NCBI GenBank assembly: GCA_026002995.1
Contig: BPGK01000001.1
Location: 1,860,001-1,924,000, forward strand
From: Gaiellaceae bacterium
GTDB taxonomy: Bacteria; Actinomycetota; Thermoleophilia; Gaiellales; Gaiellaceae
Direction of reading: 5' to 3'
Length of the DNA stretch: 64,000 nt
This document shows, piece by piece, positions 13,417 through 22,354 of the stretch. The notes beneath the pieces were generated by a model that saw only the letters and a list, made by a program, of their open reading frames with translations, made no database searches and had not been told where the DNA came from. The translations under genes and the position numbers were made by a program. Each line of letters begins with the position of its first letter. The stretch's first letter is position 1.

Positions 13417-14195
13417 GCTGCGAACTCCATGCGGCGTCCGCCCTCGGGCTGGACCTCGAGCGGCTCGAACGAGCCGTCCTCCGCAACACGGGCGCGCCAG
13501 ACGATGACGCGCCGACCGTGCAGCGTCGCCCGCGCGCCGATGTGCGGCGAGAGCGCGCGGACGCGGGCGACGAGCTCCGAGGCGGGAAGCGAGAGGTCGA
13601 GCTCCCGGTCGCTGGGGCGGATCTTCTCGGCGTACGTGACGCCCTCGGCCGGCTGGGGGACGAACGTCGGCGCGGGAAGCGCCTCCTCGAGCAGCTCGAC
13701 CGCGAGCGGCGCGGCCTTCGCATACACGGCACCGGCGTCGTCGTCGGGCTCGATCGGAAACGCCCGCTGGGCGGCGATCGGCCCGGCGTCGAGCTCCTCG
13801 ACGAGCCGGATGATCGTCACCCCCGTCTCCGTGTCTCCGGCCATGATCGCGCGCTCCACGGGCGCCGCTCCCCGCCAGCGGGGGAGGAGTGAGGGATGGA
13901 CGTTGAGCCAGAGCCGCTCCTCGAGCACCGGCCCGGGAACGATGACCCCGTACGCGACCGCGACGACGACGTCGGCGCCGAGCGGAAGGCCGGGCTCTAG
14001 CCGCTCCGGCTGGAGGACGGGGATCCCGAGCCGATCGGCGACCTCCTTCGCCGGCGGCGGCGCGAGCGTGCGCCCCCGCCCGGCCCGTGCGTCGGGGCGG
14101 GTCAGGAGCGCGCTGATCTCGTGTCGCTCGGCCAGACGCTCGAGGACGTCCGCGCCGAAGGACGCGGTTGCCGCGACCGCGATCGGCGCGCTCAC
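13395..14195 (-). CDS. fmt: Methionyl-tRNA formyltransferase (short form)
   Basis: Formylates initiator Met-tRNA using 10-formyl-tetrahydrofolate. The N-terminal catalytic domain is complete, with NVHPSLLPRWRGAAPVERAI (catalytic Asn and His plus the SLLP..RG..P signature) and VEELDAGPI (catalytic Asp). At 266 residues it is about 50 shorter than E. coli Fmt. The loss is inside the C-terminal tRNA-binding barrel, where the text runs almost directly from VIVWRARVAEDG to EPLEVQPEGGRRM. The GTG start overlaps the def stop by 4 bases (GTGA). Confidence 0.92.
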   Translation of the reverse strand: MSAPIAVAATASFGADVLERLAERHEISALLTRPDARAGRGRTLAPPPAKEVADRLGIPVLQPERLEPGLPLGADVVVAVAYGVIVPGPVLEERLWLNVHPSLLPRWRGAAPVERAIMAGDTETGVTIIRLVEELDAGPIAAQRAFPIEPDDDAGAVYAKAAPLAVELLEEALPAPTFVPQPAEGVTYAEKIRPSDRELDLSLPASELVARVRALSPHIGARATLHGRRVIVWRARVAEDGSFEPLEVQPEGGRRMEFAAWLRGLR

Positions 14196-14791
14196 CGAGC
14201 GCCGAGGACGGGCTGTGGCCGGAGCCGGGCGAGCGCGGCGCGGCGCGACTCGGGGTCGGTACGGTCGAGGATGAGGACCCCGTCGAGGTGGTCGAGTTCG
14301 TGCTGGACGATACGCGCCTCCGGGAGCGAGAGCTCGAACGAGATGGGCTCTCCACGGACGTCGACACCCTCGATCGTGACCGAGGTGACGCGCTCCACCG
14401 GGACGAGGACGTCCTGGATCGAAAGGCAGCCCTCCTCGTCGACCTCGGTCTCTCGCCCCTGGGAGGTGATGACGGGGTTCACGAGCACCCGATCCTCCCC
14501 CTGGTCGACGAACACGAACAGCCGTCGGAGGACGCCTACTTGCGTGGCAGCGAGACCGACCCCCTGCGCCTCGTGCATCAGGGTCGTCATCCGCTCCGCG
14601 AGCCGGGCGAGGTCCTCGTCGAAGACCTCGACCGGTCTCGCCTTCATGCGCAAGACGGGATCCCCGTACTGACGGATCCGCGCCAATGCGAGGAGACGGC
14701 GCGCGCGGCGCTCGAGCTCCACGCCCTCGTCCGCGTCGAGCTCGTCGCCCTCCAGGCGCTCCTCGTGGTCGTGGTCTGCGTGGTCGTGCAT
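14192..14791 (-). CDS. def: Peptide deformylase with His/Asp-rich N-terminus
   Basis: Removes the formyl group from new proteins. All three family motifs are present: GVGLAATQVG, EEGCLSI (metal-binding Cys) and QHELDHLDG (HExxH metal site). The 199-residue protein carries about 35 extra residues at the front that begin MHDHADHDHEERLEGDELD, a cluster of His, Asp and Glu that could bind metal. TAGACT (14801-14806) lies 9 bases before the ATG, supporting this long start. It is the first gene of the def-fmt-rsmB-ribD-ribE-ribBA-ribH series. Confidence 0.93.
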   Translation of the reverse strand: MHDHADHDHEERLEGDELDADEGVELERRARRLLALARIRQYGDPVLRMKARPVEVFDEDLARLAERMTTLMHEAQGVGLAATQVGVLRRLFVFVDQGEDRVLVNPVITSQGRETEVDEEGCLSIQDVLVPVERVTSVTIEGVDVRGEPISFELSLPEARIVQHELDHLDGVLILDRTDPESRRAALARLRPQPVLGAR

Positions 14792-14800
14792 CGCGCGGCG

Positions 14801-14806
14801 AGTCTA
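14801..14806 (-). promoter_or_regulatory. Putative -10 box of the def-to-ribH operon
   Basis: TAGACT on the minus strand, 9 bases before the def ATG. All downstream genes overlap or nearly touch, so this may be the main promoter for translation-initiation and riboflavin genes together. Confidence 0.5.
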
Positions 14807-14831: not shown

Positions 14832-15434
14832 TCAGCCCGAGAGACCGGTTGCTTGTCGCTGCAACTCCCGCCCGTCCGCATCGAGTGCGACGACCGCCGT
14901 CGGCACGGTCCCCAATCGGAGATCGGATCCTCGAGCCCTGAAGCCGAAGACCGCGAGATCGCGAAAGCCTCCTCTCGCGCGTGTCAGGGACACGACACGC
15001 CGTGACCCGTCGCTCATCTCGATCGCGACGCGCACCACACGACGCGAAGCCAAGCCCACGATCCGCGCATCGCTGATGTCGCGCGTCGTCGGGCCGCCAT
15101 CGAACGACAACGAGACGAACATCTCCGCCCCGCCGAGTGGATCGGACTCCAGGTTGCAGCCTCCCTGCCGGGTCAGCGACCCCGCAGACGGCGCATCCCA
15201 CAGGCAGACGTACCCGTCCGCTCTCTGGAGGAAGATCGCCCTGCGCGGAAGACCTCCCCCAGACGGGACATCGGCGACATACTCCATCGGAGCTTTCGCA
15301 AGCACGCGATGGAGCTCGTCGACGCTCTTCCCCCCGGGCGGCAGGTTGGCTCCGACGATGCCTCCAGCCAGGACACCGGTCGCCGCGCCCACTGCGGCGA
15401 GGACGACCACACTCCGTTTCCTCTGGGCGTGCAT
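14832..15434 (-). CDS. Membrane-anchored or secreted protein of unknown function
   Basis: A 200-residue protein with a basic start (MHAQRKRS) and one hydrophobic segment (residues ~9-29, VVVLAAVGAATGVLAGGIVG), so it is exported and perhaps stays anchored. The remainder looks like a compact beta-rich domain with GYVCLWDAPSAGS and GGCNLESDPLGG (two Cys) and ends with a strand series (VVALDADGREL). No family was recognised. The start is secure: AGGAGG lies just before the ATG. The gene follows the next entry by 10 bases, so the two are probably one operon of exported proteins. Confidence 0.75.
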   Translation of the reverse strand: MHAQRKRSVVVLAAVGAATGVLAGGIVGANLPPGGKSVDELHRVLAKAPMEYVADVPSGGGLPRRAIFLQRADGYVCLWDAPSAGSLTRQGGCNLESDPLGGAEMFVSLSFDGGPTTRDISDARIVGLASRRVVRVAIEMSDGSRRVVSLTRARGGFRDLAVFGFRARGSDLRLGTVPTAVVALDADGRELQRQATGLSG

Positions 15435-15444
15435 CACTGACCTC

Positions 15445-15786
15445 CTAGCTGTAGACGTGGCAACTCCCGTAGAACCCCCAGCTGTTGGCGACGCAGTGCG
15501 CCTTCTTGACCTGCGAGCTGAACCACCAGGTCGAGGTGAAGAAGCCGGTAGACCTCGTCGTGAAGTGCCACGAATACGAGACGTTGTCGATGAACGTGAC
15601 CGTCGTCCATGCGTTCGAGCTCTGCTTCCAGAACGTGTTCCGGACCCAGTTCGGGCTGAACGAGCTTCCGGCGCCCTGACCTGCCTGCCAGTACACCGGC
15701 TGCTGGTAGATGAAGGCCCCGGCCGAAGCGCTCGACGCGAAGGCGAGCATGAACGCGAGCGCAACGGTCGTGATCGTGCGTCTCAT
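15445..15786 (-). CDS. Small secreted aromatic-rich protein
   Basis: A 113-residue protein with a classical signal peptide: MRRTIT, a hydrophobic core VALAFMLAFASSASA and a likely AxA cleavage near residue 22. The mature ~90 residues are unusually rich in Trp, Tyr, Phe, Ser and Thr, with a TSTWWFSS segment and two Cys close to the end (HCVANSWGFYGSCHVYS) that could form a disulfide. The base composition is visibly less GC-rich than the surroundings. A strong GGAGG ribosome-binding site precedes the ATG. No known family was recognised; an extracellular structural or antagonistic role cannot be told apart. Confidence 0.75.
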   Translation of the reverse strand: MRRTITTVALAFMLAFASSASAGAFIYQQPVYWQAGQGAGSSFSPNWVRNTFWKQSSNAWTTVTFIDNVSYSWHFTTRSTGFFTSTWWFSSQVKKAHCVANSWGFYGSCHVYS

Positions 15787-15897
15787 GGACGTCCTCCCTC
15801 CTGCGGGCGGCTCGATGACCCGACGAGCCCGGTGTAGCCGACCTCGGAGCGCTCCACAAGTGGCCGCTCCGGCCAGTGGCCGAACGGGGCTTGTCCG

Positions 15898-17826
15898 CTA
15901 GAGCGACTGCGGATCCACGTCCACGACGGCCGAGAGCCCGTCGCGGCGCATCGCCGGGGCAGACGCGGTCAGGAGTGAGGCTGCGCGGCGCGCGAACGCC
16001 CGCGGGGAGTCGGTCTTCGCGAGGAGCTGCGCACGGTAGCGCCCTCGGAGCCGGAAGAGCGGGGCGGGCCCCAGAAGCGTCACGCCCGGCATCCGGAGCG
16101 CCTCCCGGAGCTCACTGAGGGCGCGCATGGCCATGGCCGGCTCGGGCGCGGCGACGACGAGTGCGACGAGATGCGAGAACGGCGGGTAGGCGAGCTCTTC
16201 CCGCCGAGTGAGCTCCCGCTCCAGGAAGCCGGCGACGTCGTGCCGTACCGCGTAGCGGAACGGCGTCGCATCGGGCTGGAAGGTCTGGACGAGCACGCGG
16301 CCGGGGGCGTCCCGCCCGCTGCGTCCGGCGAGCTGCGTCACGAGCTGGAACGTCCGCTCCTCCGCACGGAAGTCGGGGAAGGCGAGTCCGGTGTCGGCAT
16401 CGACGACCGCCGCCACCTCGACGCCGGGGAAGTGGTGGCCCTTCGCGACCATCTGCGTCCCTACGAGGACCGCCGCCCGGGCCGACGCGAACCGCGCCAG
16501 GGACTCGTGCAGGGCCTCGGGCGTGCGGACGCTGTCGGCGTCGAGCCGGATGCGCTCGAGCCCGGGGACGCGGCGAGCGAGCTCGGCCTCGAGCCGCTGC
16601 GTGCCCGCGCCGACGCGCGCGAGCTCGACCGACCCGCATGCCGGGCACGCGGCCGGGTAGGGCTCCGAGAAGCCGCAGTGGTGGCAGTGGAGCCTCCCGT
16701 CGGCGTGCAGGGTCAGCGCGACGTCGCAGCTCCCGCAGCGCCGCGTCCGACCGCAGGCTCGGCAGTGGACGGCGCCGGAGACGCCTCTGCGGTTGAGCAG
16801 CAGGATCGCCCGCGCGCCGCGCTCCTCGACGCGGGCGAGCTCGGCGAGGAGAGGCGCCGAGAGCGGGTAGCCAGCCTCGCGCCGGAGGTCGACGAGGCGC
16901 ACGGAGGGCAGCGGCGCCCCGATGCGCGCGGGGAGCTCGACACGAGCGAGTCGCGCCCAGCTCTCCGCTCGAGGGGTCGCGCTGCCGTAGACGACCACAG
17001 CGCCCTCGAGCGCCGCCCGCTTCGCCGCGACCGTGCGCGCGTCGTAGCGTGGATCCGCTTCCTGCTTGAAGGACGCGTCGTGTTCCTCGTCCACGACGAT
17101 CAGACCGAGCCGCTCGACGGGCGCGAACACCGCGGAGCGCGCGCCGATCGCGATCCGAGCCGCTCCCGACCGCAGCCTCGCCCGCTCGTCGCGGCGCTCG
17201 GCGTCGGTGAGCGCGGAGTGGAGGACGGCGATCCGCTCGCCGAAGCGGGCAGCGAAGCGGCCGACCGTCTGGGGCGTGAGCGCGATCTCGGGGACGAGCA
17301 CGATGACCCCCCGCCCGCGCTCGAGGGCCGCAGCCGCAGCCTGGAGGTACACCTCGGTCTTCCCGCTCCCCGTCGGGCCGTGGAGGAGGACGTGCCCGCC
17401 GCCGCCGTCGAGGGCGCGGAGAACCGCCGCCACCGCCTCCTGCTGCTCGGGGGTGAGCGCGGCCGGCGCCGGCTCTCCGAGCGGCGCGGCGCGCCGCGCG
17501 CGGGATCGGTGAGCTCCCCGCCGCGTCCGCTCGTGGGGAGCGACGAGCGCGAGCGCGCGGGCCGGTGTGCTCCCGTAGTACTCCGCCATCCAGAGGGCGA
17601 GCTCGACGAGCCGAGGGGAGACGTGGTCGACCACCGGCCCCGCCGGAGCGACCTCGATCCCCGGCGGCGCCTCGACGCCGACCTCCGCGACGACCGCGCG
17701 CACGCGCCGCCCGGCGAGCGACACCGACACGACGTCGCCGCGCCGGACGTCGTCTGCGACCTCGTACGTGAAGGCCCGCGCGAGCGCGCGCGCCGTCACG
17801 AGCGGGTACACCTCCGCGAAGGACAC
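15898..17826 (-). CDS. priA: Primosomal protein N' (PriA helicase)
   Basis: Restarts replication at repaired forks by loading the replicative helicase. The 642-residue protein has an N-terminal DNA-binding region, Walker A LLHGPTGSGKTEVYL, VVDEEHDASFKQE (DEEH box), GSATPRAESW, eight zinc-site cysteines between CRACGRTRRCGSCDVAL and CHHCGFSEPYPAACPACG, then the GTQMVAKGHHFPGV and QLAGRSGRDAPGRVLVQTF helicase motifs. Some actinobacterial PriA proteins have lost helicase residues, but here they are intact. GTG 17826 is chosen since TACGCT lies 8 bases upstream. The gene is divergent from fbpC, with about 78 bases between the starts. Confidence 0.93.
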   Translation of the reverse strand: MSFAEVYPLVTARALARAFTYEVADDVRRGDVVSVSLAGRRVRAVVAEVGVEAPPGIEVAPAGPVVDHVSPRLVELALWMAEYYGSTPARALALVAPHERTRRGAHRSRARRAAPLGEPAPAALTPEQQEAVAAVLRALDGGGGHVLLHGPTGSGKTEVYLQAAAAALERGRGVIVLVPEIALTPQTVGRFAARFGERIAVLHSALTDAERRDERARLRSGAARIAIGARSAVFAPVERLGLIVVDEEHDASFKQEADPRYDARTVAAKRAALEGAVVVYGSATPRAESWARLARVELPARIGAPLPSVRLVDLRREAGYPLSAPLLAELARVEERGARAILLLNRRGVSGAVHCRACGRTRRCGSCDVALTLHADGRLHCHHCGFSEPYPAACPACGSVELARVGAGTQRLEAELARRVPGLERIRLDADSVRTPEALHESLARFASARAAVLVGTQMVAKGHHFPGVEVAAVVDADTGLAFPDFRAEERTFQLVTQLAGRSGRDAPGRVLVQTFQPDATPFRYAVRHDVAGFLERELTRREELAYPPFSHLVALVVAAPEPAMAMRALSELREALRMPGVTLLGPAPLFRLRGRYRAQLLAKTDSPRAFARRAASLLTASAPAMRRDGLSAVVDVDPQSL

Positions 17827-17834
17827 CGGGAGCG

Positions 17835-17840
17835 AGCGTA
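17835..17840 (-). promoter_or_regulatory. Putative -10 box of priA
   Basis: TACGCT on the minus strand, 8 bases before GTG 17826, fitting the near-leaderless pattern. Confidence 0.45.
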
Positions 17841-17887
17841 GTCGAGCCGCTGGGCGCCGCCCGCCCGTTCGCCGGCGCGGCGAGCCG

Positions 17888-17905
17888 TGTAAGGTACTCC
17901 TTACA
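17888..17905 (+). promoter_or_regulatory. DtxR-type operator 1, at the fbpC start
   Basis: Inverted repeat TGTAAGG-TACT-CCTTACA with perfect 7-base arms. The core TAAGGTACTCCTTA differs by one base from the TnAGGTnnACCTnA pattern of the other three sites. The site contains TAAGGT, a possible -10 box 9 bases before ATG 17905, and its last base is the first base of that ATG. A bound repressor would therefore block the promoter directly. Confidence 0.75.
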
Positions 17906-18924
17906 TGAGTGGCTCCATGATCCGCCTCGAGCGCGTGACGAAGCGCTTCGGCGACGTCACAGCCGTGGACGAGGCCTCGCTCGGGGTCGCGCGGGGCGAG
18001 GTGCTCGCGCTGCTCGGGCCGTCGGGGTGCGGGAAGACGACGCTGCTCCGGCTCGTCGCCGGCTTCGAGCAACCGGACGCCGGAGCGATCGAGATCGCAG
18101 GAGAGCTCGTGAGCGGACGTGACACCTGGGTGCCGCCCGAGCGCCGGCGTGTCGGCATGGTCTTCCAGGACTACGCGCTCTTCCCCCACCTCACGGTTCG
18201 CGAGAACGTCGGCTTCGGTCTCGCCCGACGCGAGCGCCGGGCACGCGTCGCCGAGTTGCTCGCGATCGTCGGCCTCGAGGAGCTCGGCTCCCGCTACCCG
18301 CACGAGCTCTCGGGCGGCCAGCAGCAGCGGGTCGCGCTCGCGCGCGCGCTCGCCCCCTCGCCCGAGCTCGTCCTGCTCGACGAGCCGTGGTCGAACGTCG
18401 ACTCCTCGATGCGCGAGACGCTGCGCGCCGAGGTCGCGGACATCATCCGGCCGCTCGGCGTGACCGTCGTCCTCGTGACCCACGACCGCGAGGAGGCCTT
18501 CTCGCTCGCCGACCGCATCGCGCTCATGCGCGACGGCGCGATCGTGCAGGAAGGCACCTCGGAAGAGCTCTACTTCGCCCCGGCGAGCCGCTGGGCCGCC
18601 GAGTTCGTCGGCGCCGCGAACGTGCTCACGGGGCCTGTCGAGCACGGCCTCGTGCGCACGCCGATCGGCGCCTTTCCCGTCGATCGGGACGGCGACCGCG
18701 CGGAGGTCGAGGTGCTCGTCCGCCCGGAGCTCCTCGAGCTCGAGCCGGACCCGAGTGGCGCAGGCGAGGTGGTGGCCCGCGAGTTCCGCGGCCACGACGT
18801 CTTCTACCGCGTCCGCCTCGGAGGCGTCGAGGTCGTCTCCCAGCGCCCGTCGAACGAGGTGGTCCCGCTCGGCTCCCGCGTGCGGGTCAAGCTGCACAAC
18901 GGCCGCACGGCCGTCTTGCGGTAG
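17905..18924 (+). CDS. fbpC: Iron(III) ABC transporter ATP-binding protein
   Basis: ATPase of a ferric iron importer of the FbpABC/spermidine-type family, 339 residues. Walker A is LLGPSGCGKTTLLRLVAG, the Q-loop MVFQDYALFPHLTV, the signature ELSGGQQQRVALARALA, Walker B LVLLDEPWSNVD and the switch His VTHDREEA. The C-terminal ~100 residues form a TOBE-like regulatory domain (from AANVLTG to VRVKLHNGRTAVLR). ATG 17905 overlaps the operator; ATG 17917 (MIRLERVTKRFG) is a plausible alternative. Order here is fbpC-fbpA-fbpB-dtxR. The iron assignment rests on the paired binding protein, the permease and the operators. Confidence 0.88.
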   Translation: MSGSMIRLERVTKRFGDVTAVDEASLGVARGEVLALLGPSGCGKTTLLRLVAGFEQPDAGAIEIAGELVSGRDTWVPPERRRVGMVFQDYALFPHLTVRENVGFGLARRERRARVAELLAIVGLEELGSRYPHELSGGQQQRVALARALAPSPELVLLDEPWSNVDSSMRETLRAEVADIIRPLGVTVVLVTHDREEAFSLADRIALMRDGAIVQEGTSEELYFAPASRWAAEFVGAANVLTGPVEHGLVRTPIGAFPVDRDGDRAEVEVLVRPELLELEPDPSGAGEVVAREFRGHDVFYRVRLGGVEVVSQRPSNEVVPLGSRVRVKLHNGRTAVLR

Positions 18925-18936
18925 GCGACCCAGGTA

Positions 18937-18954
18937 TGTAAGGTGCACCTTACA
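18937..18954 (+). promoter_or_regulatory. DtxR-type operator 2, upstream of fbpA
   Basis: TGTAAGGTGCACCTTACA is a perfect 18-base palindrome between fbpC and fbpA. Its core TAAGGTGCACCTTA matches TnAGGTnnACCTnA exactly. Its centre is 23 bases from that of operator 3, close to two helical turns, so two dimers could sit side by side. Confidence 0.8.
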
Positions 18955-18961
18955 CCGCGGC

Positions 18962-18975
18962 TGAGGTAAACCTTA
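18962..18975 (+). promoter_or_regulatory. DtxR-type operator 3, upstream of fbpA
   Basis: TGAGGTAAACCTTA matches TnAGGTnnACCTnA, 6 bases before the GAGGAG ribosome-binding site of fbpA. Binding here would cover the transcription start region. Confidence 0.7.
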
Positions 18976-18991
18976 TCCAAGAGGAGCGAAT

Positions 18992-20017
18992 GTGACGAAG
19001 AGGATCACTGCCGTCCTGTTTGCGGCCCTACTCGGGGCGCTCGCGCTCGTGAGCGGCGCGACGCCGGCCCCCACGCAGTCGACGACGCTCACCATCTACT
19101 CGGGCCGCGACGAGCGCCTCGTAAAGCCGATCATGGATCGGTTCACGCGCGAGACCGGAATCCAGCTCAACGTGCGCTACGCCCCCTCCGCGGCGCTCGC
19201 GACCGCGCTCGTCGAGGAGGGTCGCAACAGCCCCGCCGACGTCTTCTGGTCGCAGGAGCCCGGCACGCTCGGTCTCGTCGCCGCCCGCGGGCTCCTGGCT
19301 CGACTGCCGCAAGCGACGGTCGGCAAGGTGCCACCCCGCTTCTCGACGCGCAGCCGGCGCTGGGTGGGCACGAGCGCCCGCTCGCGCGTCCTCGTCTACA
19401 ACACGCGCGAGCTCACAGCGAGCCAGCTCCCGACCTCGGTCTGGAATCTCGTCGATCCGCGCTGGAAGGGGAAGATCGGGATCGCGCCCACGAACGCGTC
19501 GTTCCAGGCCTTCCTCGGTGCGACGATCCACCTCTACGGCGAGGAGCGCGTACGCAGCTGGCTGCGCGGGCTGGAGGCGAACGACGTCCGCCTCTACCCG
19601 AACAACACCTCGATCGTGCAGGCCGTCGGCCGCGGCGACGTGCTGGTCGGGCTCGTGAACCACTACTACCTCTACAACGTCCTCGCCGACACGCCGGGTC
19701 TCCCCGTGCGCAACCACTGGTTCCGGGACGGCGACCCGGGCAACCTCGTCCTCGCCGCAGGCGCGGGGATCGTCGCCTCGACGACGAAGCCCGCGCAGGC
19801 GCAGCGCTTCGTCGACTTCCTCCTCTCGAAGTGGGCGCAGCGGTTCATCGCGCGAGGGCCGGGCGCCGCCGAGTACCCGCTGATCAAGGGCGTCCCGCGG
19901 CGCCCCGGACTGCCGGCTCTCGCCGACATCAAGGGGCCGAAGTACCCGCTCGGCCGCCTGGCCGCGGACATCGGGCCGGCCGTGCGACTCCTCCTCGAGG
20001 AGGGCCTCATCAAGTGA
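18992..20017 (+). CDS. fbpA: Iron(III) ABC transporter substrate-binding protein
   Basis: Extracytoplasmic ferric-binding protein of the FbpA/transferrin-like class, 341 residues. A signal peptide (MTKRITAVLFAALLGALALV) is followed by LTIYSGRDERLVKPIMDRF, the family's N-terminal strand-helix, and DVFWSQEPGTLGL. The adjacent tyrosines in LVNHYYLYNVL match the metal-ligand Tyr pair of FbpA proteins. RWKGKIGIAPTNASFQAF and FRDGDPGNLVLAAGAGIV are other family hallmarks. No lipobox Cys is evident. GTG 18992 follows GAGGAG with 5-base spacing; the overlapping ATG at 18990 is out of frame. Confidence 0.9.
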   Translation: MTKRITAVLFAALLGALALVSGATPAPTQSTTLTIYSGRDERLVKPIMDRFTRETGIQLNVRYAPSAALATALVEEGRNSPADVFWSQEPGTLGLVAARGLLARLPQATVGKVPPRFSTRSRRWVGTSARSRVLVYNTRELTASQLPTSVWNLVDPRWKGKIGIAPTNASFQAFLGATIHLYGEERVRSWLRGLEANDVRLYPNNTSIVQAVGRGDVLVGLVNHYYLYNVLADTPGLPVRNHWFRDGDPGNLVLAAGAGIVASTTKPAQAQRFVDFLLSKWAQRFIARGPGAAEYPLIKGVPRRPGLPALADIKGPKYPLGRLAADIGPAVRLLLEEGLIK

Positions 20018-21627
20018 GCTCGGGCGCGGCGGCCGCGGTCGCACCACGCGGCCGCCGCCCCCCGTGGCTCCTCCTCGTCGCGGCGACGCTCGTCGCGCTC
20101 GCCGCCGTGCTCCCGCTCGCCTACCTCGCGCTGCGCGCGCTCTCCGCGGACGCGGAGGCGCGAGCGCTGACGCCGGCTGCGACTGTGCTCGAGCTCGTCG
20201 CGGACACGGCTCTGCTCGCAGGCGGCGTGCTCGTGGCGGCGCTCCTCGTGGGCGTTCCCTACGCCTGGCTCGTCGTCCGGACCGACCTGCCGGGACGGCG
20301 ACTCTGGGGGCTCGCGGCCTCGCTCCCGCTCGTCGTCCCGAGCTTCGTCGCTGCCTTGGCGCTCCTCGGCGCCCTCGCTCCTCGCGGCCTCGTCCAACGC
20401 GCGCTCGGGCCGCTCGGCGTCGAGCGCTTGCCCGATCTCGACGGGTACTGGGGCGCCACGCTCGCGCTGACGCTCTCCACCTACCCATACGTGTTCCTGC
20501 TCGCCGCCTCGGCCCTGCGCAGCGTCGACCCGTCCGCGGAGGAGGCCGCTCGCGGCCTCGGCAGCGGGACGGTCGGCGTCTTCGCTCGCGTCACGCTGCC
20601 GTCGCTCCGCCCGGCGCTCGCCGCGGCCTCGCTCCTCGTCACGCTGTACGTGCTCTCCGACTTCGGCGCCGTCTCGCTCATGGGGTACGAGACGCTCACG
20701 ACCGCCGTCTACGTGCGCTACGAGTCCCTGCTCGCCCTCGACTCCGCGGCCATTCTCGCGCTCGTTCTCGTCGCGCTCGCGGTTGTCCTCGTCCTCGTCG
20801 CGTCTCGCCTTCGACTCCGCGGCGCGATCTACCGAGCCACCCCGGGAGCCGGGCGGCAGGCGCGGCTCGTGCGCCTCGGCCACTGGCGCTGGCCGGCGCT
20901 CGGCTTCTGCGCGCTCGTCACGGGCCTCTTCCTCGTGCTGCCGCTCGCGGTGCTCGTCTCCTGGTCGCTCGAGGCCGATCCGATCGTGGGCCGCGCGGGC
21001 GTCGCCTGGGCGGCCGCGGCGCGCTCGACCGCTGTGGCCGGGCTCGCAGCGCTCGTCGCAGCGCTCATCGTGCTGCCCGCGGCCGTGCTCGCGTGGCGCT
21101 ACCCGTCGCCGCTCACGCGCCTCCTCGAGCGCGTCACGCTGTTCCCGAGCGCGCTGCCCGGGATCGCGGTCGCGCTCGCGCTCGTCTTCTTCGGCTCGCG
21201 GGCCGGGAGCATCGTCTACCAGAGCCTCGGTCTCCTGCTCGCCGCGTACGTGCTCCGCTTCATGCCCTACGCCCTCGCCTCGACGCGGGCATCGCTCGAT
21301 GCCATCAACCCGCACCTGGAGGAGGCGGCGCGCTCGCTCGGGCGCAGACCGACCGGCGCGGTCGTCTCCGTCGTGCTCCCGCTCGCGCGCTCGGGAATCC
21401 TCGCCGGCGCCGCGCTCGTCTTCCTCAGCACGATCAAGGAGCTTCCCGTCACGCTCCTCCTCCGGCCCATCGGGTTCGAGACGCTCGCGACCGAGATCTG
21501 GAAGGGCACCGCTGTCGGGGCCTACTCCGAGGTGGCCCCCTCCGCTCTTGCCCTGATCGCGATCGCGGCGCCCTTCGTCTACCTCCTCTCCTGGCGCAAC
21601 GCCTGGGAGCTCGGCGCCGCCGATTGA
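20014..21627 (+). CDS. fbpB: Iron(III) ABC transporter permease (double-length)
   Basis: A 537-residue membrane protein made of two fused permease units, as usual for FbpB, with about 12 hydrophobic segments. Each half has the EAA loop that contacts the ATPase: SAEEAARGLGSGTVGVFARV in the first and LEEAARSLGRRPTGAVVSVV in the second. The start is GTG 20014, overlapping the fbpA stop by 4 bases (GTGA); a longer open frame beginning in fbpA is not used. It completes the importer with fbpC and fbpA and is followed 40 bases later by the regulator gene. Confidence 0.9.
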   Translation: MSSGAAAAVAPRGRRPPWLLLVAATLVALAAVLPLAYLALRALSADAEARALTPAATVLELVADTALLAGGVLVAALLVGVPYAWLVVRTDLPGRRLWGLAASLPLVVPSFVAALALLGALAPRGLVQRALGPLGVERLPDLDGYWGATLALTLSTYPYVFLLAASALRSVDPSAEEAARGLGSGTVGVFARVTLPSLRPALAAASLLVTLYVLSDFGAVSLMGYETLTTAVYVRYESLLALDSAAILALVLVALAVVLVLVASRLRLRGAIYRATPGAGRQARLVRLGHWRWPALGFCALVTGLFLVLPLAVLVSWSLEADPIVGRAGVAWAAAARSTAVAGLAALVAALIVLPAAVLAWRYPSPLTRLLERVTLFPSALPGIAVALALVFFGSRAGSIVYQSLGLLLAAYVLRFMPYALASTRASLDAINPHLEEAARSLGRRPTGAVVSVVLPLARSGILAGAALVFLSTIKELPVTLLLRPIGFETLATEIWKGTAVGAYSEVAPSALALIAIAAPFVYLLSWRNAWELGAAD

Positions 21628-21653
21628 GCCCCGGGCCGGCAGAGGGCGCCGGC

Positions 21654-21659
21654 TAGACT
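21654..21659 (+). promoter_or_regulatory. Putative -10 box of the DtxR-family gene
   Basis: TAGACT ending 8 bases before ATG 21668. It would let the regulator be transcribed apart from the fbp genes. No operator-like palindrome is present in this 40-base gap, so autoregulation is not evident. Confidence 0.45.
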
Positions 21660-21667
21660 CGGGGTCG

Positions 21668-22354
21668 ATGGCACAGGCGCACGGACACTCGGTCGACGAG
21701 TACCTCGAGACGATCTACTTCCTCGCCTTCCCGATCGGCGAGTACCGCCCCGCGACCGGCTCGACTGCGATCGCGTCGCGCGTCGCCGAGATGCTCGGCG
21801 TCTCGCGCGCCTCGGCGGGCGAGATGCTGAAGCGCCTCGAGGCCGAGGGACTCGTCGAGCGCGGCGAGCAGAAGGAGGCGATCCTCACACCCGAGGGCGC
21901 GGAGCGGGCGAAGAGGGTCGTCCGTAAGCACCGGATCATCGAGTGCTTCCTGACGGACTTCATGGGCTACACCGCCGCCGAGTCCCACGTCCACGCCGAT
22001 GAGCTCGGCGACACGTTCACCGACGACATGATCGAGCGGATGAACGAGCGCCTGGGCCGTCCTGCCCGCTGCCCGCACGGGTGGCCCGTGGACACCGAGG
22101 TCGAGCAGGCCGAGAACGCGCACCTCGTCCCGCTCGGCGAGTTGGGCGCGGGACGGGAGGCCGAGATCGTCCGGCTCGCCGAGCACGACGGCGAGCTCCT
22201 GCACTGGTTCTACGCCACGGGTCTCGCGCCGGGAACCCGCGTGCGGGTCGTCCGCGCCGAGCCGGCGGTGGGACAGCTCGTCGTCGCCGTCGACGGCACC
22301 GAGCGCGCCGTCACGGAGAAGGCGGCCGACGGGATCTACGTCCGGGCCGAGTAG
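21668..22354 (+). CDS. DtxR-family metal-dependent repressor
   Basis: A 228-residue metalloregulator. Residues ~1-75 are the winged helix (SVDEYLETIYFLAF, IASRVAEMLGVSRASAGEMLKRLEAEGLV), ~76-140 the dimerisation and metal-binding domain (ECFLTDFMGYTAAESHVHADEL, RLGRPARCPHGWPV), and the C-terminal ~75 residues a FeoA/SH3-like domain (LAPGTRVRVVRAEPAVGQLVVAVDG). The Cys/His/Glu residues of the two metal sites seem present. Whether it senses Fe2+ or Mn2+ cannot be decided from sequence, but it follows an iron importer, and DtxR-type boxes precede that importer and FTR1, so iron is favoured. Confidence 0.9.
   Translation: MAQAHGHSVDEYLETIYFLAFPIGEYRPATGSTAIASRVAEMLGVSRASAGEMLKRLEAEGLVERGEQKEAILTPEGAERAKRVVRKHRIIECFLTDFMGYTAAESHVHADELGDTFTDDMIERMNERLGRPARCPHGWPVDTEVEQAENAHLVPLGELGAGREAEIVRLAEHDGELLHWFYATGLAPGTRVRVVRAEPAVGQLVVAVDGTERAVTEKAADGIYVRAE

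What the first reader, a model, noticed from the sequence alone, without database searches (positions are those of the whole stretch)
14832..15786. Two-gene operon of exported proteins including a Trp/Tyr/Phe-rich low-GC peptide
The 113-residue protein has a clear signal peptide, many aromatic residues, a C-terminal cysteine pair and lower GC than all neighbours, consistent with recent arrival or special codon constraints. Its partner is a single-helix anchored protein. Both have strong ribosome-binding sites. No family was recognised, so they may represent an undescribed surface or antagonistic pair.
Basis: partly seen in the sequence, partly recalled or inferred. Interest (0 to 1): 0.5.

Follow-up and report, generated by a model that had tools for sequence, protein, structure and literature searches.

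The report
Paired secreted and membrane-anchored protein cassette
A soil actinobacterium carries a swappable two-gene cassette for a small secreted protein and a matching membrane-anchored partner, an arrangement that resembles a toxin with its antidote but whose function has not been tested.

Summary
A 113-aa exported protein (p113, 15786-15445, minus) and a 200-aa anchored protein (p200, 15434-14832) form an operon between priA and def in a Gaiellaceae-like genome (Thermoleophilia). No Pfam, NCBIfam, PHROGs or PADLOC model matches significantly. p113's low GC reflects its amino acids: its GC3 is 0.91. The pairing is conserved: 10 genomes carry it, 7 at the same priA-def site. Three genus members have an empty site there. 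Two allele types exist, and both genes switch type together: sister species G006 and G007 (bootstrap 100) carry opposite types, and tree tests reject the species grouping for both genes. A conserved promoter with a palindrome precedes the operon. p113 is predicted to be a jelly-roll beta-sandwich; p200's ectodomain ends in an Ig-like half. The same ectodomain family also occurs on membrane proteins encoded after ECF sigma genes (31 of 44 hits) or after other small secreted proteins (8 of 44). The best reading is a polymorphic exported effector with a membrane-tethered cognate partner, most likely antagonist and immunity (about 45%). Binding and toxicity are untested.

The parts
15445..15786 (-). 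p113: exported small protein, 113 aa, Trp/Tyr/Phe-rich, C98 and C109 invariant in the family
15721..15786 (-). predicted Sec-type signal peptide of p113 (about residues 1-22, ending ASA)
   Evidence: read from sequence; low-confidence N-terminal helix in the model
15448..15720 (-). mature part of p113, predicted jelly-roll-like beta-sandwich
   Evidence: AlphaFold pLDDT 80; structural neighbours
14832..15434 (-). p200: anchored partner, 200 aa, C77 and C93 invariant in 14 relatives
15366..15416 (-). predicted transmembrane helix of p200 (residues 7-23); only about 6 residues precede it
15861..15875 (-). palindrome TGGCC-GGAGC-GGCCA, possible operator, conserved in form in most of 7 genomes
15831..15859 (-). 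predicted promoter TTGTGG-N17-TACACC (TTGACR-N17-TAGAYN in most relatives)
   Evidence: only occurrence of palindrome plus promoter pattern in the genome
15898..17847 (-). priA, upstream flank of the cassette site
   Evidence: Pfam
14192..14791 (-). def (peptide deformylase), downstream flank of the cassette site
   Evidence: Pfam; empty sites in relatives

Best explanation
A polymorphic two-gene cassette for an exported beta-sandwich protein (p113) and a cognate membrane-tethered ectodomain (p200). Proposed working: p113 is exported by the Sec route, folds outside with one disulfide and acts in the envelope of related cells; p200, fixed in the membrane facing outward, binds p113 of its own type and protects the producer. 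Shown here: the operon layout, conserved pairing, joint switching of allele type, presence/absence at one site, a conserved promoter sequence. Predicted only: export, topology, folds. Inferred: binding, toxicity and protection.
For: Pairing: all 10 genomes with a clear p113 relative (G000, G001, G002, G003, G004, G006, G007, G010, G013, G039) have a p200 relative directly downstream; nine measured gaps are 10-19 nt. In G039, of another genus, the pair lies elsewhere, so the link is not just shared synteny. Joint type switch: def and priA are about equally diverged (0.71-0.76), yet p113 and p200 fall into types A and B at the same site; the flanking-gene tree joins G006 with G007 (bootstrap 100), while p113 and p200 each join G006 with G010 (96, 97); AU tests reject the reverse in all three data sets (p 4e-9, 1e-60, 8e-5). 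Empty sites in G004, G005, G008. Anchored proteins group by the type of their secreted partner: 10 of 10 for p113 type, 3 of 3 for a second secreted family, 2 of 3 for a third. G039 has three more secreted/anchored pairs in a row. Precedent: TipC, a single-helix membrane immunity protein with an outward inhibitory domain (PMC6193138, abstract and passages).
Against: No toxic motif, no dedicated transporter next door and no recognised bacteriocin family. No orphan immunity gene was established. The same ectodomain family sits mostly downstream of ECF sigma genes (31 of 44), which suggests a general sensing or binding module rather than a dedicated immunity fold. Fold matches are generic: p113 best Z 10.6 to a protease jelly-roll domain; p200 best Z 6.1.
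Confidence: 0.45

Rival explanations
1. Surface recognition or wall complex: p113 is a surface protein held by p200, used for adhesion, kin recognition or wall structure. Allele types would then reflect recognition specificity or phage escape, not toxicity.
For: Jelly-roll fold near carbohydrate-binding and lectin-type modules and an Ig-like half in p200; joint allele types fit self-recognition equally well.
Against: Absence from the site in 3 of 10 assessable genus members means it is not essential there; several unrelated secreted partners for one ectodomain family fit a diversified arsenal better.
Confidence: 0.27
2. Signal pair: p113 is a secreted signal, and ectodomains of this family detect such proteins. 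In other species the ectodomain is wired to an ECF sigma factor; p200, without a cytoplasmic part, is a decoy or co-receptor.
For: 31 of 44 family hits follow an ECF sigma gene; median distance from sigma stop to membrane helix is 122 nt, against 11-52 nt for most secreted-linked partners. In G039 a sigma gene is divergent from the p113 pair and an anchored gene with a sigma-linked type of N-terminus lies inside the array. A conserved palindrome suggests regulation.
Against: The window genome has no second ectodomain hit better than E 0.95, so no sigma-linked receptor of this type is visible there; p200 has no signalling domain.
Confidence: 0.18
3. Ordinary lineage-specific secreted proteins with no special interaction, linked by chance and inherited together.
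For: Both are simple exported proteins without known domains; fast divergence alone could be weak constraint.
Against: The pair also occurs outside the shared locus (G004, G013, G039) and both genes switch type together; 8 of 10 evaluable non-sigma partners have a small signal-peptide gene directly upstream against 4 of 95 control genes.
Confidence: 0.1

Closest known systems
TelC-TipC (type VII secreted toxin with membrane-anchored immunity protein, Streptococcus intermedius)
   Same: An exported protein encoded with a partner that has one N-terminal membrane helix and an outward-facing domain of about 180 residues (abstract and passages of PMC6193138).
   Different: p113 is about 90 residues after signal cleavage with a Sec-type signal, not a large type VII effector; folds differ; no activity is known.
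Lactococcin 972 family
   Same: Small exported protein; recalled: aromatic-rich beta-sandwich of similar size. Lactococcin 972 binds lipid II and is not modified (passages of PMC9964109).
   Different: No Pfam match to it at E 1 for p113 or its 9-member alignment; neighbours are priA and def, not the multi-pass immunity protein and ABC transporter recalled for that family.
ECF sigma-linked membrane anti-sigma-like proteins of Thermoleophilia
   Same: Ectodomain matched by the profile that contains p200.
   Different: They carry a cytoplasmic N-terminal stretch and follow a sigma gene; p200 has about 6 residues before its helix and follows a secreted protein gene.
PBSX exported protein XepA and the Tk-SP protease jelly-roll domain
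   Same: Same beta-sandwich arrangement as the p113 model (Z 9.7 and 10.6).
   Different: 10-12% identity; a shared fold shows no shared function.

Membership tests
Lactococcin 972 bacteriocins | sequence match to a Pfam profile (that the family has its own Pfam model is recalled) | tested here: not met
   no Pfam family at E up to 1 for p113; among 9 relatives only three stray weak hits to other families
Lactococcin 972 bacteriocins | multi-pass immunity protein and ABC transporter alongside (recalled) | tested here: not met
   flanks are priA and def; p200 has one helix
TelC-TipC type effector-immunity pairs | toxin exported by type VII secretion | tested here: not met
   p113 has a signal-peptide-like N-terminus and only 113 residues
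TelC-TipC type effector-immunity pairs | immunity protein with N-terminal membrane helix and outward inhibitory domain | tested here: inconclusive
   helix 7-23 and a beta ectodomain predicted; orientation and inhibition not testable here
Polymorphic toxin-immunity pairs (general) | cognate genes vary together between strains at one locus | tested here: met
Polymorphic toxin-immunity pairs (general) | toxic activity neutralised by the partner | not testable with these tools
   needs experiment
Membrane-bound anti-sigma factors | cytoplasmic sigma-binding domain and a sigma gene next door | tested here: not met
   about 6 residues before the helix; upstream genes are p113, then priA; no anti-sigma Pfam hit among 14 members at E 0.1

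The most novel reading that the evidence does not exclude
A class-wide recognition system in Thermoleophilia: one superfamily of two-cysteine ectodomains is used both as stand-alone membrane partners of diverse small secreted proteins and as the outer part of ECF sigma-linked membrane regulators, so that cells neutralise their own secreted protein with one copy and sense kin or rival proteins with another, with pairs exchanged as cassettes.
Probability: 0.2. Interest if true: 0.8.

Novelty: new variant of a known kind. Interest (0 to 1): 0.57.

Why it matters
If the pair is an antagonist with its antidote, it opens a diversified family of antibacterial proteins in a largely uncultured soil lineage. 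If it is a signal pair, it would say what the many ECF-linked ectodomains of that lineage detect. Either way the two allele types give a direct specificity test: does type A bind only type A?

Tried and rejected
Recent arrival by composition: rejected, as p113 GC3 is 0.91. Phage or plasmid origin: no p113 match in the phage or plasmid collections; a viral contig scan gave 36 pattern stretches and no relative. Defence system: no PADLOC match. The weak Pfam hit of p200 to Bacteriocin_IIc (E 0.087, score 13.3, cut-off 27.1) covers only the membrane helix and was dismissed. Solved structures by sequence: three hits above E 0.4 for p113, none for p200. p200 by Foldseek: no match below E 0.001. The viral structure library gave only generic beta-sandwich matches for p113, 37 below E 0.001. 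Hits L014 (G006) and L015 (G065) of the p200 search (E 0.005-0.006) were dropped, being, by eye, in a beta-propeller-like and a methylenetetrahydrofolate reductase-like frame; six weak p113-profile hits above E 1e-4 (G236, G298, G053, G078, G157, G094) were not followed. A4 hits in other classes (L125, L126, L128, L129) were viewed; two look like lipoproteins without a small secreted neighbour. Literature searches: Thermoleophilia with secreted and ECF sigma (0 papers), Gaiellales with hypothetical proteins and secreted proteins (0), Thermoleophilia with anti-sigma (3), Thermoleophilia with bacteriocin (10 found, 8 listed), and others; I saw listings and passages of three papers, and none described this pair.

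The flanking genes used for the tree lie on the same contigs as the pair in G006 and G007; a chimeric contig cannot be fully excluded.

Full report
What is there. On the minus strand between priA and def lie two genes 10 nt apart: p113 (15786-15445) and p200 (15434-14832). Both have strong ribosome-binding sites. Pfam identifies priA (15898-17847) upstream and def and fmt downstream. Neither protein matches Pfam, NCBIfam, PHROGs or PADLOC significantly.

Composition. p113's GC is 0.617, with GC1 0.38, GC2 0.56 and GC3 0.91; fmt and priA have GC3 0.91-0.92. The low GC is an amino-acid effect. p200's GC3 is 0.77, lower than its neighbours and similar to its orthologues (0.74-0.77).

Where it occurs. 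With p113 alone, 7 of 101 genomes (window genome and relatives) match; with a profile, 11 of 399 genomes of the class do at E 0.001, three of them weakly. With p200 alone, 8 of 61 match, three of them weakly. Named relatives are uncultured Actinomycetota, Thermoleophilia and Gaiellaceae assemblies (4 loci). The pair lies between priA and def in G000, G001, G002, G003, G006, G007 and G010, and elsewhere in G004, G013 and G039. The p113 relative of G004 was found by a profile that did not contain it, directly upstream of its p200 relative.

Site. In G004, G005 and G008 of the same genus, def follows the priA stop after a short gap that ends in a TAGACT- or TACACT-like box before the def ATG; the filled sites carry the cassette between the priA stop and that box. 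G009 could not be judged, because its contig ends 69 nt upstream of the def match. So 7 of 10 assessable genus members are filled.

Types that switch together. def identity to the window is 0.71-0.76 in the five genomes compared, including G006 and G010, and priA is 0.76 in the three compared. p113 is 0.43-0.51 to three type A genomes but 0.37-0.41 to G006 and G010; p200 is 0.43-0.47 against 0.24-0.31 over about half its length; G006 and G010 are 0.56 and 0.47 to each other. A tree of def, fmt and priA joins G006 with G007 at 100. The p113 and p200 trees each join G006 with G010 (96 and 97). AU tests reject the G006-G010 clade for the flanking genes and the G006-G007 clade for p113 and for p200. 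Some other nodes are weak (53-64, 32-35). The simplest account is exchange of the two genes as one unit.

Promoter. Upstream of p113 most genus members share TTGACR-N17-TAGAYN and, just before it, a palindrome of the form TGNCC-N5-GGNCA (window TGGCC-GGAGC-GGCCA); G007 and G002 fit it less well. The combined pattern occurs once in the 2.62-Mb genome, at this promoter; the reversed control occurs nowhere. The promoter form is shared by both types, so it stayed while the coding parts changed.

Partner family. A profile of 14 anchored relatives (A4) matches 76 of 399 genomes of the class at E 0.01. I fetched 40 stretches around hits outside the training set, out of more than 100 hits listed; 44 open frames matched locally. 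Directly upstream lies an ECF sigma gene in 31 of 44 and a small signal-peptide gene in 8 of 44 (one, L089, without a clear start codon); 3 are cut by contig ends and 2 have neither. In a control, 4 of 95 other genes in these stretches have such a small gene upstream, one of them preceded by a family member itself. Distance to the membrane helix is 83-264 nt after sigma genes (median 122) and 11-52 nt after most secreted genes, with L087 at 103 and L111 at 65, so most stand-alone partners lack a cytoplasmic part.

Several secreted families. Besides p113 there is a family with a CSGWxYW-like motif in three genera (G039, G245, G233), and another in G013 (two copies) with a weaker relative in G039. 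The last link rests on weak similarity: scores 47-50 against shuffled maxima of 44-67. Anchored partners find their best match within the same secreted type in 10 of 10 (p113), 3 of 3 and 2 of 3 cases. In G039 four secreted/anchored pairs lie in about 6 kb beside a sigma gene; a 148-nt stretch that covers the sigma-p113 intergenic region is repeated at 93% before the second pair.

Structure. p113: mean pLDDT 80, eight strands, best structural neighbours Tk-SP jelly-roll (Z 10.6) and XepA (Z 9.7). p200: mean pLDDT 84.6, helix 7-23 then a beta ectodomain; no Foldseek match below E 0.001, best Z 6.1 over residues 103-199 to Ig/fibronectin-type domains.

Reading. Operon layout, conserved pairing, empty sites, joint type switching and an array of alternative pairs together point to a cognate exported effector and tethered partner. 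Antagonist with immunity is the best-supported function by analogy with TipC, but toxicity and binding are inference. Surface recognition and signalling remain open. It is not a lactococcin 972 member by profile, and p200 is not an anti-sigma factor by architecture.

Noticed in passing
14192-14791 and relatives L016, L018, L021, L043: Peptide deformylase of this genus starts with a His/Asp/Glu-rich stretch (HDHADHDHEE in the window, longer HDHDH runs in relatives), which may bind metal.
   Followed up: no
14789-14806: def seems leaderless: a conserved TAGACT-like box lies 9 nt before its ATG and is kept in empty and filled sites.
   Followed up: partly
17905-22354: By eye, upstream of priA on the plus strand lie genes resembling an iron-type ABC transporter (ATPase, binding protein, permease) and a DtxR-like regulator.
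   Followed up: no
L020 1862-2009 and 3420-3567: 148-nt direct repeat, 93% identical, covering the sigma-p113 intergenic region and repeated before another secreted/anchored pair.
   Followed up: partly
L085, L090, L092, L095, L099, L101-L107 and others: A large family of membrane proteins encoded right after ECF sigma genes in Thermoleophilia, often with two or more profile matches to the ectodomain in one protein.
   Followed up: partly
L126 about 1160-1761, L128 about 1498-2145: Lipoprotein-like relatives of the anchored ectodomain in other classes of the phylum.
   Followed up: partly
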